64,000 nucleotides of DNA, from contig NZ_KI912183.1 of assembly GCF_000189755.2 (NCBI RefSeq), positions 2,966,255 to 3,030,254 of the forward strand. Reading direction: 5' to 3'. A model generated the notes under the pieces. It saw only the letters and a program-made list of their open reading frames with translations, had not been told where the DNA came from and did no database searches. Source of the DNA: Desulfotomaculum nigrificans DSM 574. GTDB lineage: Bacteria > Bacillota > Desulfotomaculia > Desulfotomaculales > Desulfotomaculaceae. Below are positions 180-63,800 of the stretch, in pieces (the stretch's first letter is position 1; every line of letters begins with the position of its first letter). A program made the translations under genes and the position numbers.

Positions 180-204
180 GTTTTTAATATCATAACTCAA
201 CGAC

Positions 205-464
205 TATGATGGAGAAAAGTAGATCGTTCCCAGCCTTCCAGGGAGAAGAAGCCTTGACTGGAAGCTTCTTTAAGGTATGGTTGATTGAAGTTCTCTTCGG
301 AGTTGCTGTACTGAACTTTGAGTAGGTGCAGTCGGGAGTTCCCGCCGTTAAAAGGGAAGAGGTATCGGATTGATATGTCCAGTACCGGTAAAGTGGCCTT
401 TTGGCAATTAGGGTGGTACCGCGAAATCAAGCATTTCGTCCCTTGGCGGATGAAATGCTTTTTT
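205..464 (+). promoter_or_regulatory. T-box riboswitch (complete first unit)
   Basis: tRNA-sensing leader. The T-box core AGGGTGGTACCGCG lies at 410-423. It is followed by an intrinsic terminator whose arms (431-441 and 448-458) precede a T run at 459-464. Upstream are a stem I base (GAGAA paired with TTCTC at 291-295), an AGTA motif in the 5' side of the specifier loop, a distal hairpin around 234-265, and the stem III/linker signature ending in CCGTTA near 345-350. The base-pairing I can draw places GAA (Glu) at the specifier position, followed by G. TGG (Trp) at 278-280 lies higher in the stem. The UGGU bulge fits a tRNA with discriminator A. The specifier is my manual folding and not certain. 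Confidence 0.88.
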
Positions 465-19925: not shown

Positions 19926-21248
<1,323 letters not shown>

Positions 21249-21428: not shown

Positions 21429-21505
21429 GTGGATATAGCTCAGTTGGTCAGAGCACCAGATTGTGGCTCTGGGGGTCGTGGGTTCGAGTCCCATTATCCA
21501 CCCCA
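21429..21505 (+). tRNA. tRNA-His (anticodon GTG)
   Basis: Acceptor GTGGATA pairs with TATCCAC. The anticodon stem CCAGA/TCTGG encloses GTG at 21463-21465. Discriminator C is followed by encoded CCA. A G at 21428 can form the extra G(-1):C pair typical of tRNA-His. First of four clustered tRNA genes. Confidence 0.95.
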
Positions 21506-21523
21506 CAAATTTAATATCTACAT

Positions 21524-21598
21524 TGGGGTGTCGCCAAGCGGTAAGGCATCGGTCTTTGGAACCGACATTCGTAGGTTCGAATCCTGCCACCCCAGCCA
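21524..21598 (+). tRNA. tRNA-Gln (anticodon TTG)
   Basis: Acceptor TGGGGTG pairs with CACCCCA. The anticodon stem TCGGT/ACCGA encloses CTTTGGA, giving TTG. The T arm GTAGGTTCGAATCCTGC is intact and CCA is encoded. Confidence 0.95.
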
Positions 21599-21602
21599 GC
21601 GT

Positions 21603-21678
21603 GACCCATTAGCTCAGTCGGTAGAGCACCTGACTTTTAATCAGGGTGTCCCGCGTTCGAGTCGCGGATGGGTCACCA
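21603..21678 (+). tRNA. tRNA-Lys (anticodon TTT)
   Basis: Acceptor GACCCAT pairs with ATGGGTC, with discriminator A and encoded CCA. The anticodon stem CCTGA/TCAGG encloses CTTTTAA, giving TTT. Only 4 bp separate it from tRNA-Gln, so the genes are co-transcribed. Confidence 0.95.
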
Positions 21679-21705
21679 TTATTTATCCACAATAATTTTG
21701 TAAAT

Positions 21706-21790
21706 GCGGATGTGGCGGAATTGGCAGACGCGCCAGACTTAGGATCTGGTACCGCAAGGTGTGGGGGTTCAAGTCCCTTCATCCGCACCA
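21706..21790 (+). tRNA. tRNA-Leu (anticodon TAG)
   Basis: 85-nt class II tRNA with a long variable arm. Acceptor GCGGATG pairs with CATCCGC, followed by ACCA. The anticodon stem CCAGA/TCTGG encloses CTTAGGA, giving TAG. Confidence 0.95.
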
Positions 21791-23566: not shown

Positions 23567-23630
23567 CATTGGGAATATGGTAGTATAGTAAGCCTAAAAG
23601 TTTTTACTTTTATTCCAAGGAGGCGGTATC

Positions 23631-24218
23631 ATGTCAGCATTAGTACCAATTGTTGTGGAGCAGACCAACAGAGGCGAGCGGGCGTACGATATTTATTCCA
23701 GATTGTTAAAGGACCGGATCATTTTTATTGGGGGGCCCATTGACGATCACATTGCCAATCTGGTCATTGCCCAGTTTTTATTCCTGGAGGCAGAAGACCC
23801 CGAAAAGGATATCCATCTTTACATTAACTCACCTGGTGGTGTCGTCACCGCTGGTTTAGCCATTTACGATACCATGCAGTACATAAAACCTGCAGTTTCT
23901 ACCATTTGCTTAGGGCAAGCTGCCAGTATGGGTTCTTTTCTACTGGCTGCGGGAGCTAAAGGAAAACGTTATGCCCTTCCCCAGGCCCGGATTATGATTC
24001 ACCAGCCCCTGGGCGGTGTGCAAGGTCAGGCCACGGACATTGATATTCACGCCAGGGAAATTTTGCGCATGAGAGAAATTTTAAATGAGAGACTATCTCA
24101 CCACACTGGCCAGCCCTTGGAAAAAATAGCTCGGGACACCGAGCGGGACTTCTTCATGTCAGCGGAGGAGGCTAAGAAATATGGCATCATTGATGAGGTG
24201 ATGCCATATCGGAAGTAA
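23631..24218 (+). CDS. clpP: ATP-dependent Clp protease proteolytic subunit
   Basis: 195 aa, normal length. Catalytic Ser near residue 98 in [11 protein letters not shown], His near 123 in MIHQPLGG, and Asp near 172 in ARDTERD. It forms the tetradecameric barrel that degrades substrates fed by ClpX. The start ATG follows AAGGAGG. clpX follows after 19 bp. Confidence 0.97.
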
Positions 24219-25532: not shown

Positions 25533-25539
25533 TTTCGGG

Positions 25540-25792
25540 TCAGCTGTTAGCCGTTAGACTAATACTGCATTTCCTGGGGTCCTGTCGTTAGACTAATACT
25601 GCATTTCTTTGTGGTCCTGTCTTAGTACCTTGAGTATTTTCTGGGGTCTTAGCATACACTGACCAGAAAGAAATGCCTAGATACTAACAACAGGACCAAA
25701 AAGAAATACCTATAAGACTAACTACAGGACCGAAAAGGAATACCCATAAGCCCAGACTGAACCCCAAAGAAATGCCCCATAACGACTAAAAT
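25540..25792. repeat. long imperfect palindrome of iterated units, copy A
   Basis: The left arm repeats a unit of about 34 bp three times (GGTCCTGTCGTTAGACTAAT then ACTGCATTTC). GGTCCTGT occurs at 25579-25586 and 25614-25621. The right arm carries the reverse complement units, with ACAGGACC at 25691-25698 and 25725-25732. The symmetry centre is near 25660. The whole could fold as one long hairpin. The same family occurs at 61950 and 63513. It contains no ORF. Confidence 0.8.
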
Positions 25793-42475: not shown

Positions 42476-42732
42476 AGGCAAAGTCGAAGAAGGGGAGTTC
42501 CCGGATAAATTTGGTCCCAGAGAGGGAGACCCCAGGCTGCAAAGTCTCCTGTCCAAATCCCAGGATGTCGCCCCGGAGTCGCCAGGCTGAAATTGATTAG
42601 GCCTGGACGGGTCAGCCCGTTACAGCTTAATTGAGTTGCCACCCAATATAACTTTATTTTGACAATGGGTGGAAACAAGGTGGTACCGCGGAAGCAAACT
42701 TCCGTCCTTGAGTGGACGGGAGTTTTTTGTTT
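42476..42732 (+). promoter_or_regulatory. T-box riboswitch of valS (Val specifier GTC)
   Basis: The T-box core AAGGTGGTACCGCGG lies at 42678-42692. It is followed by the terminator AACTTCCGTCC/GGACGGGAGTT and a T run. Stem I opens with GGGG and closes with CCCC, with GTC at 42567-42569 in the specifier position followed by G, which matches tRNA-Val. The linker CCCGTTA is at about 42617-42623. Uncharged tRNA-Val should allow readthrough into valS. Confidence 0.92.
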
Positions 42733-61633: not shown

Positions 61634-61912
61634 GTGTTAGATTTTTTAAGCAGGGTTTTTGGCCGTGATTCAACCAGCAGCAAGAATGTGGCCAAAGAAA
61701 GACTTAGACTGGTATTGGTACACGACCGGGCCAATGTTTCACCTGAACTACTGACGTCCCTCAAAAATGACTTAATCAAGGTTATTTCAAATTACATGGA
61801 AATAGACGAGAAGGCTCTGGAAGTAAGCCTGGACAGCAGCGAGGACCAGGTAGCCTTAGTCGCCAACATACCGGTGAAGAGAATGAAAAGAAGCGTGAAA
61901 AGTCCGGCCTAA
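61634..61912 (+). CDS. minE: cell division topological factor MinE
   Basis: 92 aa, GTG after AAAGGGGG. The N-terminal amphipathic LDFLSRVFGRD, then SKNVAKERLRLVLVHDRANV and LKNDLIKVISNYMEIDEKAL match MinE. It triggers MinD ATP hydrolysis. It follows minD by 15 bp. Confidence 0.94.
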   Translation: MLDFLSRVFGRDSTSSKNVAKERLRLVLVHDRANVSPELLTSLKNDLIKVISNYMEIDEKALEVSLDSSEDQVALVANIPVKRMKRSVKSPA

Positions 61913-61913
61913 A

Positions 61914-61945
61914 AACAGGAGGTGCGAAAGCACCTCCTGTTTTTA
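61914..61945 (+). terminator. terminator of minCDE
   Basis: Perfect 12-bp arms AAACAGGAGGTG and CACCTCCTGTTT around CGAAAG, then TTTAG. It overlaps nothing else. Confidence 0.88.
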
Positions 61946-61949
61946 GGCT

Positions 61950-62215
61950 GGGGTATTTCTCTTGGGTACCGCTGTTCGCTATTCGCCTATGGGGTATTTC
62001 TTATGGGTCCTGTTGTTAGACTATGTGGTATTCCTCTCGGGTCCTGTCGTTAATATACAAGTATTCCTTGCAGGCCTAGTTACTAAGCGGCTGGGTCTAT
62101 TTTATTGGCTCAAGGCCTTATATAGAACCAAACCTGTCAAGTAACCAAAAGCGAAAAGCGAAGAGCGAACAGCGAATAGCCTGCCCGTAAGCCTGTGCCC
62201 CAAAGTTTCCCCCTT
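61950..62215. repeat. long imperfect palindrome of iterated units, copy B
   Basis: Left-arm units begin GGTATTTCTTATGGGTCCTG and carry GGTCCTGT at 62006-62013 and 62040-62047. The right arm holds degenerate reverse units. The outer parts GCTGTTCGCT (61971-61980) and AGCGAACAGC (62164-62173) are inverted. Its centre matches copy C well, for example TGGCTCAAGGCCTTATATAG against the sequence at 63661. A 60-codon ORF in it has no ribosome site or coding character. Confidence 0.78.
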
Positions 62216-62270
62216 CCGTTTTCTCATGCAGTATTATATAATCTAAAGGTTAGGGGGTGAATGAAGTTTT

Positions 62271-63512
62271 ATGGTGGACAAACGGTTTATTAGGAGCCTT
62301 GATTATACACTGGTTATTGCTGTCCTTTTAATTATCTGCTTTAGTTTGGTCATCATCAGCAGTGCTACCTTGGTTAGCAGCCCCAAGGATATTCGGGCGC
62401 ACCAGGAAATGTTAAATAATAACGTATCCGGGGTAAATAGCGGCAACACCGTCGACGAACCCCTGAGCGTAACCATTGCTAAATACAGTAAGGTTTTATT
62501 TAGTGAATTTGTCAAAAAGCAGATTCTTTGGTTTATTCTAAGTTTATTTTTGGTGCTGGGGATACTGTCAGTACCTTATGAAGATTTCCGACGCCACCGG
62601 AAAACAATATATTTAGTCAATATTCTTTTACTATTGGTGGTTTTATCACCCTTAGGTCATAGCGCCAAGGGTGCCACCAGGTGGATTAACCTGGGGCCCT
62701 TTTTGCTGCAACCTTCGGAATTTGCCAAACTATTTATCATCATTACCTTTGCCGACTTCTTAACCAGAAGAGAGGGTAAATTAAATAATCTGAAAGAGCT
62801 GCTGCCCTGTTTTGTCCATATCGGTGTTCCCATGCTGCTAATCCTGAAACAGCCGGATTTAGGTACCTCACTGGTGTTCATTGCGATTATGTTTGGAATG
62901 CTGTTTGTGGCCGGCGCTAACCCCAAATTACTGGCCACCCTGTTTTTTGGCGGCCTGGCGGTCGGTATAACCTGGGTATGGGCGCACTTCCAATTTGGCC
63001 TGTGGATACCTATGAAGGAATACCAACTGGACCGCCTGCTGGTTTTCCTGGACCCATGGAAACAGTGGCAGGGTGCCGGTTATCACGTGGTCCAGTCCCA
63101 GATTGCCATTGGTTCTGGTGGCTTAACCGGTAAGGGCATCTATAACGGCAGCCAGAACCAGCTCAACTTCTTACCCGAACAACACACCGACTTTATCTTT
63201 TCAGTGGTAGGAGAAGAACTGGGCTTTGTCGGTGTGACGACACTATTGCTCTTGTTCTTCATTGTTTTATACAGAGGGATTCGCATCGCCTCCCAGGCCA
63301 GAGACTTAAACGGTGCCCTGCTGGCCACCGGAGTAGTATCCATGCTAACCTTTCATATTTTAATTAACGTGGGCATGGTTTCCGGCATCATGCCTGTAAC
63401 CGGTGTGCCCTTGCCATTGTTCAGTTACGGCGGCAGCAGCATGTTTACCAATATGTCGGCCATTGCTGTTTTGTTAAATGTGTATATGCGAAGGCAGAAG
63501 ATAGTGTTCTAA
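62271..63512 (+). CDS. rodA: rod-shape/elongation glycosyltransferase RodA (SEDS family)
   Basis: 413 aa, about ten membrane segments. SEDS signatures GATRWINLGPFLLQPSEFAK, LKQPDLGTSLVF and the C-terminal GMVSGIMPVTGVPLPLFSYG. It polymerises glycan strands with PBP2. An extra loop of about 40 residues between the first two membrane segments (about 33-75) is longer than usual. ATG after GGGGGTG. Confidence 0.93.
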   Translation: MVDKRFIRSLDYTLVIAVLLIICFSLVIISSATLVSSPKDIRAHQEMLNNNVSGVNSGNTVDEPLSVTIAKYSKVLFSEFVKKQILWFILSLFLVLGILSVPYEDFRRHRKTIYLVNILLLLVVLSPLGHSAKGATRWINLGPFLLQPSEFAKLFIIITFADFLTRREGKLNNLKELLPCFVHIGVPMLLILKQPDLGTSLVFIAIMFGMLFVAGANPKLLATLFFGGLAVGITWVWAHFQFGLWIPMKEYQLDRLLVFLDPWKQWQGAGYHVVQSQIAIGSGGLTGKGIYNGSQNQLNFLPEQHTDFIFSVVGEELGFVGVTTLLLLFFIVLYRGIRIASQARDLNGALLATGVVSMLTFHILINVGMVSGIMPVTGVPLPLFSYGGSSMFTNMSAIAVLLNVYMRRQKIVF

Positions 63513-63800
63513 GTGGTATTCCTTTGGGGGCAGCTGTTAGCCTTTAGGGTATTCCTTACGGGTCCTGTTGTTAGATTAAGGGATATTCCTTTGCGGTCCT
63601 GTTTCTAGTATTCGGGTATTTCTCGGGGGTCCAGTCACTGAGTGGCTGGACCTTTTCAGCTGGCTCAAGACCTTATAAGAAACCAGGCCCGTAAGGCCAA
63701 CAACAAGACCCCAAGGCCTTACCCCTAAGTCTAAAAGCCAAAAGCCAATGGCCAACAGCTAACAGCCGCCCCCAAAGAAACTCCCATAAGCCAAGTAGAG
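63513..63800. repeat. long imperfect palindrome of iterated units, copy C
   Basis: Left-arm units begin GGTATTCCTTACGGGTCCTG, with GGTCCTGT at 63561-63568 and 63595-63602. The central part resembles copy B (TGGCTCAAGACCTTATAAGA at 63661 on). The right arm is rich in GCCAAAAGCC-type words complementary to the left end (GCAGCTGTTAGCC against AACAGCTAACAGCC). It contains no gene. Confidence 0.78.

What the first reader, a model, noticed from the sequence alone, without database searches (positions are those of the whole stretch)
61950..63800. Two more copies of the palindromic family flank rodA (copies B and C)
Copies B and C share the same left-arm units (GGTATTTCTTATGGGTCCTG type), a common centre (TGGCTCAAGGCCTTATA) and inverted ends, and lie on both sides of rodA. 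B and C are closer to each other than to A. Three copies in 64 kb suggest a dispersed intergenic family, perhaps a non-autonomous mobile element or a structural DNA repeat. I know of no name for it.
Basis: partly seen in the sequence, partly recalled or inferred. Interest (0 to 1): 0.65.

Follow-up and report, generated by a model that had tools for sequence, protein, structure and literature searches.

The report
Gene-edge hairpin repeats built from 7-mers
The two repeats beside rodA belong to a family of roughly 85 DNA hairpins that fill the gaps between neighbouring genes, often starting right at one gene's stop signal and ending just before the next gene's ribosome-binding site, and they seem to be copied mainly between nearby gaps.

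Summary
Observation confirmed and extended. Copies B (61946-62213) and C (63509-63790) flank rodA; A lies at about 25535-25780. They are three of about 85 non-rRNA loci in this 3.05-Mb genome. The invariant part is an 18-nt cap P (GGGTATTYCTTTGGGGTC): 211 genomic matches at up to 3 mismatches against 6 for the reversed control. P faces inward on both sides in 54 of 55 two-sided loci. The ends pair (median folding z -5.1). Elements often fill a gene gap edge to edge, 0-7 nt after a stop codon and about 20 nt before a start codon; they also sit in rRNA spacers. Neighbouring copies resemble each other more than distant ones, and B resembles C more than its orthologues. Occupancy of the minE-rodA gap is patchy among relatives. 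No near-identical copies, target duplication or mobilising gene were found. Best reading: a non-autonomous, locally spreading hairpin repeat family that varies in 7-nt steps. Expression, RNA processing and the copying mechanism are untested. Rfam and the held literature gave no match.

The parts
61946..62213 (.). Copy B: caps at 61951, 61992 and 62027 facing right, heptad arrays, centre with TGGCTCAAGGCCTTATA, degenerate inward-facing cap at about 62195-62213
   Evidence: fold of 61949-62215: -88.1 kcal/mol, z -3.1
62271..63512 (+). rodA, the gene between B and C (not part of the element; context)
   Evidence: orthologues
63509..63790 (.). Copy C: caps at 63514, 63547, 63581, 63614 facing right and 63707, 63768 facing left; starts within the rodA stop codon (TAA G TGGTATT)
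   Evidence: z -6.9
63628..63656 (+). Centre of C: 11-bp hairpin GGTCCAGTCAC/GTGGCTGGACC followed by TTTT, terminator-like
   Evidence: (read directly)
25535..25780 (.). Copy A: caps at 25599 facing right and 25661, 25694, 25728, 25760 facing left; two-arm hairpin
   Evidence: z -4.0
61904..61951 (+). Perfect hairpin plus T run just after minE, abutting copy B; an ordinary terminator, also present in relatives without the element
   Evidence: (I1)

Best explanation
A, B and C are ordinary members of a dispersed, non-autonomous intergenic repeat family. Each element is a long imperfect hairpin: inward-facing caps (CTTAnGGGTATTYCTTTGGGGTC) at both ends and, between them, arrays of degenerate heptads, often interrupted by further caps, so that length varies in 7-nt steps (pattern shown; slippage as its cause inferred). 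Elements fill the space between neighbouring genes, from the stop codon to just before the Shine-Dalgarno sequence (shown, with a heuristic gene caller). The ends pair, so in RNA or single-stranded DNA the element folds out and leaves stop codon and ribosome-binding site side by side, which would make it tolerable inside operons (inferred). Copies arise or are homogenised mainly between nearby gaps (shown as excess similarity of neighbours); the copying step, by template switching or gene conversion at hairpins or by an unidentified enzyme acting in trans, is inferred.
For: Cap: 211 matches against 6 control. Inward rule 54 of 55. Period 7 in cap spacing (p 2e-25; 6e-9 without the 34-nt class) and in the spacer DNA. 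Hairpin folding, 48 of 52 with z below -2, ends paired. Gene-edge placement in G000 and again in G001. Patchy occupancy of the minE-rodA gap, at least two changes forced on the RodA tree. Neighbours within 4 kb more alike, 64.3 against 42.1 bits, 0 of 10,000 permutations; B of G000 closer to C of G000 (97 bits) than to any orthologue (at most 46), and the same in G009 (275 bits).
Against: No recent copies: no pair at 90% identity over 80 nt in G000 or G001. No target duplication could be read. No partner gene: 16 loci with Y1 transposases carry no cap, and G010 has caps but no Y1 gene. Neighbour similarity could also come from gene conversion between old copies without any new insertion. Many junctions are filled in both G000 and G001, as vertical descent would give.
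Confidence: 0.55

Rival explanations
1. The elements are kept for a function in RNA: intercistronic hairpins that are cut (for example by RNase III) or that insulate or couple adjacent cistrons, and therefore come to occupy whole spacers.
For: Placement exactly between stop codon and Shine-Dalgarno sequence in co-directional pairs; presence in rRNA operon spacers, which are transcribed and processed; ends pair with ends. Precedent: NEMIS/Correia transcripts are RNase III substrates (PMC2229807, PMC10969869).
Against: Element length, sequence and presence at a given junction change quickly between relatives; divergent and convergent gaps carry them too; no sense-strand bias of terminator-like hairpins (10 of 34 sense, 8 of 34 antisense); only modest arm-arm co-fit within elements.
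Confidence: 0.25
2. Classic MITE: short derivatives of an insertion sequence, mobilised by its transposase acting on the terminal inverted repeats.
For: Inverted ends with a conserved sequence, patchy occupancy of sites, dispersed intergenic copies.
Against: Internal repeats of the end sequence in 20+7n steps, variable length, no near-identical copies; no target duplication read; no insertion sequence with these ends seen, though only Y1 transposases were searched.
Confidence: 0.12
3. Vertically inherited spacers that only expand and shrink in place by slippage, without movement.
For: Many junctions filled in both G000 and G001 with different length; heptad periodicity.
Against: The same 18-nt cap at about 85 unrelated loci cannot arise by slippage in place; neighbours resemble each other across genes; the rodA site needs several gains or losses on the tree.
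Confidence: 0.08

Closest known systems
Paired 7-8-mer arrays of Geobacter metallireducens ('predicted global regulator binding sites', classes 1-3; PMC2700814)
   Same: Multicopy arrays of 7-8-nt tandem units occurring in pairs on opposite strands at variable distance
   Different: Repeat consensus sequences differ (GTTGCTYN, TCTCCGTS, MTYCTGA); no conserved cap is described in the text; explained there as IHF/HU sites; alignments are in supplements that could not be read
TAACTGA heptamer repeats of Beggiatoaceae and Cyanobacteria (PMC4679880)
   Same: Intergenic heptamer arrays close to start codons, some overlapping the stop codon of the gene before, indels in 7-nt steps
   Different: Single-direction arrays, almost no inverted pairing, no cap, and they take the place of the Shine-Dalgarno sequence instead of stopping before it
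NEMIS/Correia, ERIC and RUP small mobile sequences (PMC2229807, PMC10969869)
   Same: Intergenic 100-200 nt repeats with inverted ends whose transcripts fold into long stem-loops
   Different: Fixed size, one sequence per family, target duplications; here length varies in heptads, copies are diverged and no duplication was seen
REP/REPIN repeats with RAYT transposases (PMC3733652, PMC3116915)
   Same: Dispersed inverted pairs in intergenic DNA
   Different: The cap itself is not a palindrome, shows no GTAG/CGTC tag, and has no link to Y1 transposases
Heptameric G-rich repeats of Xanthomonas and Nostoc (PMC4692102)
   Same: Intergenic heptamer arrays with length and sequence changes between relatives
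   Different: Mostly single-direction G-quadruplex-forming arrays without caps

Membership tests
MITE | Conserved terminal inverted repeats | tested here: met
   Inward caps in 54 of 55 two-sided loci; end consensus CTTAnGGGTATTYCTTTGGGGTC
MITE | Target-site duplication | tested here: inconclusive
   Filled and empty junctions of G000 and G001 compared; flanks too diverged to read a duplication
MITE | Fixed size and near-identical copies | tested here: not met
   No pair at 90% over 80 nt; sizes 38 to about 700 nt
MITE | Related insertion sequence with the same ends | tested here: inconclusive
   None at 16 Y1 transposase loci; other transposase families not searched
REP/REPIN with RAYT | Short palindrome with GTAG or CGTC tag | tested here: not met
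REP/REPIN with RAYT | RAYT (Y1) transposase associated with the repeats | tested here: not met
   G010 has 37 caps and no Y1 gene; no cap near 16 Y1 loci
NEMIS/Correia-type hairpin repeat | Transcript folds end to end into a long stem-loop | tested here: met
   Median z -5.1, ends paired in most elements, prediction only
NEMIS/Correia-type hairpin repeat | Cleavage of the transcript by RNase III | not testable with these tools
   needs RNA data
NEMIS/Correia-type hairpin repeat | Family sequence and constant 106-158 nt size | tested here: not met
   Size varies in 7-nt steps; different consensus
Paired heptamer arrays (Geobacter type) | Tandem 7-8-mers in opposite-strand pairs | tested here: met
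   Period 7 and inward pairing
Paired heptamer arrays (Geobacter type) | Same repeat consensus | tested here: not met
   GCTGTTA/TTCGCTG/GTCAGCC types here against the published consensus sequences
Rfam families | Covariance-model match at gathering score over an element | tested here: not met
   No hit over elements in the window or in 111 kb of other element loci

The most novel reading that the evidence does not exclude
A new class of bacterial repeat: a conserved 18-nt cap brackets an exchangeable short-tandem-repeat interior (7-mers in this family, 9-mers of the ACAGGATTA type in other families of the order), and copies spread by local, hairpin-templated copying into adjacent gene gaps, seating themselves between stop codon and ribosome-binding site, without a dedicated transposase.
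Probability: 0.25. Interest if true: 0.75.

Novelty: new variant of a known kind. Interest (0 to 1): 0.55.

Why it matters
It joins three things usually described apart (MITE-like hairpins, heptamer arrays, RNA structure at operon junctions) in one genome with about 85 natural copies, many seated exactly between two cistrons, and with filled and empty versions of the same junction in relatives. It also offers a case in which a repeat family seems to spread between neighbouring spacers, which makes the open question of how small repeats multiply without a visible transposase testable by comparing strains.

Tried and rejected
Rfam family or riboswitch: no match. REP/RAYT: no link to Y1 genes. 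Intrinsic terminator as the general role: no sense bias, although the centres of B and C look terminator-like. Insertion inside 16S, 23S or 5S genes: elements lie in the spacers, genes intact. Strong arm-arm covariation: only a modest excess (22.1 against 17.6, sd 1.0), and arm length is not controlled. Naming the host: the genome contigs pattern scan returned one distant MAG only, near relatives may be left out there. Target duplications: flanks too diverged. Literature search by sequence strings: nothing.

Full report
OBSERVATION. The window is G000:C1:2966255-3030254 of a 3.05-Mb genome. Copies B and C are real: 171 nt align at 72%, and the unit pattern occurs 8 times against 0.04 expected. 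They flank rodA (62271-63512). C begins in the rodA stop codon (TTC TAA G TGGTATTCC). Copy A lies at about 25535-25780.

FAMILY. A BLAST of B against its genome gave 110 matches at some 40 loci. The common denominator is not the 34-nt unit but an 18-nt cap P, GGGTATTYCTTTGGGGTC: 211 genomic matches at up to 3 mismatches against 6 for the pattern read backwards. I fetched stretches that hold 197 of these and made a weight matrix. At score 12 it finds 306 caps (26 in the reversed control) in 99 clusters; 14 clusters are rRNA- or 5S-linked or near copies of such loci and were set apart, leaving 85. Caps face inward: 71 of 72 multi-cap clusters read >*<*, and 54 of 55 two-sided clusters are convergent. 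Outside the cap the end consensus is CTTAn.

HEPTADS. Distances between successive caps in one direction peak at 27, 34, 41, 48, 55, 62 and 69, that is 20+7n. A Rayleigh test for period 7 gives R 0.62, p 2e-25, and p 6e-9 when the 32-36 class is left out; the self-match of spacer DNA is 0.44, 0.41 and 0.36 at lags 7, 14 and 21 and 0.23-0.30 at the others. In G001 and G009 the period 7 is strong inside the caps only (0.43 and 0.59 inside, 0.27 and 0.26 outside). In G036, of another family of the order, the DNA inside the same cap carries 9-mers of the GACAGGATTAACAGGAT type (lag 9: 0.35, nine caps only); in G010 the same 9-mers are weaker and also lie outside the caps.

HAIRPIN. Of 52 elements folded as RNA, 48 have z below -2 and 34 below -4 (median -5.1), and in most of them the first and last 24 nt pair with each other. 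With caps masked, arms of one element fit each other better than swapped arms (22.1 against 17.6; 1 of 10,000 permutations), but arm length is not controlled and single elements often do not rank first.

PLACE. With a heuristic gene caller (ORF length plus Shine-Dalgarno), 59 of 79 classified non-rRNA loci lie between co-directional genes, 13 between divergent and 7 between convergent ones. Element ends hug genes: 27 caps lie 0-7 nt from a stop codon, in two peaks (0-2, where the stop codon is made by the element end CTTAG or CTAA; and 5-7, where CTTAn follows the stop directly), and 24 caps lie 18-23 nt before a start codon with the Shine-Dalgarno sequence in between. At nine complete elements both sides are tight (for example 2559335: 5 and 22 nt; 2188350: 6 and 20 nt). 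G001 shows the same peaks. Elements also occupy rRNA operon spacers: 16S-23S (20207-20557; 23S starts at 20573) and 23S-5S (23597-23774; 5S starts at 23789); the rRNA genes are intact.

RELATIVES. Caps are enriched throughout the genus, in G009 of the same family and in some other families of the order (G010 37, G036 83, G038 19 at up to 2 mismatches, controls 0-2). Of 398 genomes of the phylum only 18 had a match at 1 mismatch, most with one or two. The minE-rodA gap holds an element in G000, G001 and G009 and none in G003, G004, G006, G007 and G008; after rodA there are elements in G000, G001 and G009, partial ones in G004 and G006 and perhaps G008, none in G003. On a RodA tree the filled genomes do not group: G000 pairs with empty G004 (80/96) and G001 with empty G003 (97/98); well-supported branches force at least two changes. 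Of 52 junctions located in both G000 and G001, 36 hold caps in both, with unlike sequence and length, and 16 do not; at one of them (2188350) G001 has a different palindrome instead. The G001 stretches were chosen for caps, so the shared fraction is biased upwards.

SPREAD. No two elements of G000 or of G001 are 90% identical over 80 nt. Elements within 4 kb of each other are more alike than others (64.3 against 42.1 bits; 0 of 10,000 permutations), with mutual best pairs such as 2084858/2085826, 2168728/2169867 and 2345085/2346630. B of G000 matches C of G000 (97 bits) better than any orthologue (at most 46), and B and C of G009 match at 275 bits. Clusters are concentrated at 2.0-2.5 Mb (53 of 99). 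This fits local copying, or gene conversion, between spacers.

MECHANISM. Shown: the cap, the inward rule, the 7-nt quantisation, predicted folding, gene-edge placement, patchy occupancy, neighbour similarity. Inferred: that lengths change by slippage; that hairpin-templated repair keeps arms alike; that the folded element leaves stop codon and ribosome-binding site adjacent and so is tolerated; that copying is local. Unknown: the enzyme, if there is one. The main rival, a selected intercistronic RNA element, is not excluded and could be true in addition. Terminator-like hairpins are no general feature (10 of 34 sense, 8 of 34 antisense).

KNOWN KINDS. Nearest in anatomy are the paired opposite-strand 7-8-mer arrays of Geobacter metallireducens (PMC2700814) and the TAACTGA arrays beside start codons in Beggiatoaceae (PMC4679880). 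Nearest in behaviour are NEMIS/Correia-type hairpin repeats, whose transcripts are RNase III substrates (PMC2229807, PMC10969869). Membership in MITE, REP/RAYT and NEMIS fails on at least one tested feature each. I found no description of this cap, but the library lacks most subscription journals and supplements were not readable. Hence: new variant of a known kind.

LIMITS. Gene ends come from a heuristic. Only G001 was compared at many junctions; the others only on both sides of rodA. There are no expression data. Only one class of transposase was searched.

Noticed in passing
L055:9640-9915 (G000:C1 about 2480582-2480857): Upstream of a lone 5S rRNA-tRNA pair, two element arms enclose a good sigma-70-type promoter (TTGACA, TATAAT), so arms can lie on both sides of a functional sequence.
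   Followed up: partly
G000:C1:2097696-2098389 (in L044): Left and right arms enclose a small ORF of about 40 aa (MAKAIDIKALDARRKML...) with its own terminator; not a transposase by inspection.
   Followed up: no
G000:C1:2000000-2500000: More than half of all element clusters lie in this sixth of the genome; cause unknown.
   Followed up: no
G001 orthologue of junction G000:C1:2188350 (in L123): The same gene gap holds a different palindrome (GGGTCAGACCCC...GGGGTCTGACCC), and the gap after rodA in G007 holds AAAAACCGTCCCC...GGGACGGTTTTTT: unrelated hairpin families occupy the same kind of gap.
   Followed up: no
G003:C1:16468-17381: Caps recur in a tandem array with a 259-nt period (four copies).
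   Followed up: no
G009, minE-rodA gap (L063): The minE terminator found in the other genomes is missing and the element runs up to the rodA -10 box; its centre carries a terminator-like hairpin, as if element DNA had replaced the old spacer.
   Followed up: partly
window 197-446 and 42478-42712; 21429-21787: Two T-box leaders and a cluster of four tRNA genes.
   Followed up: no
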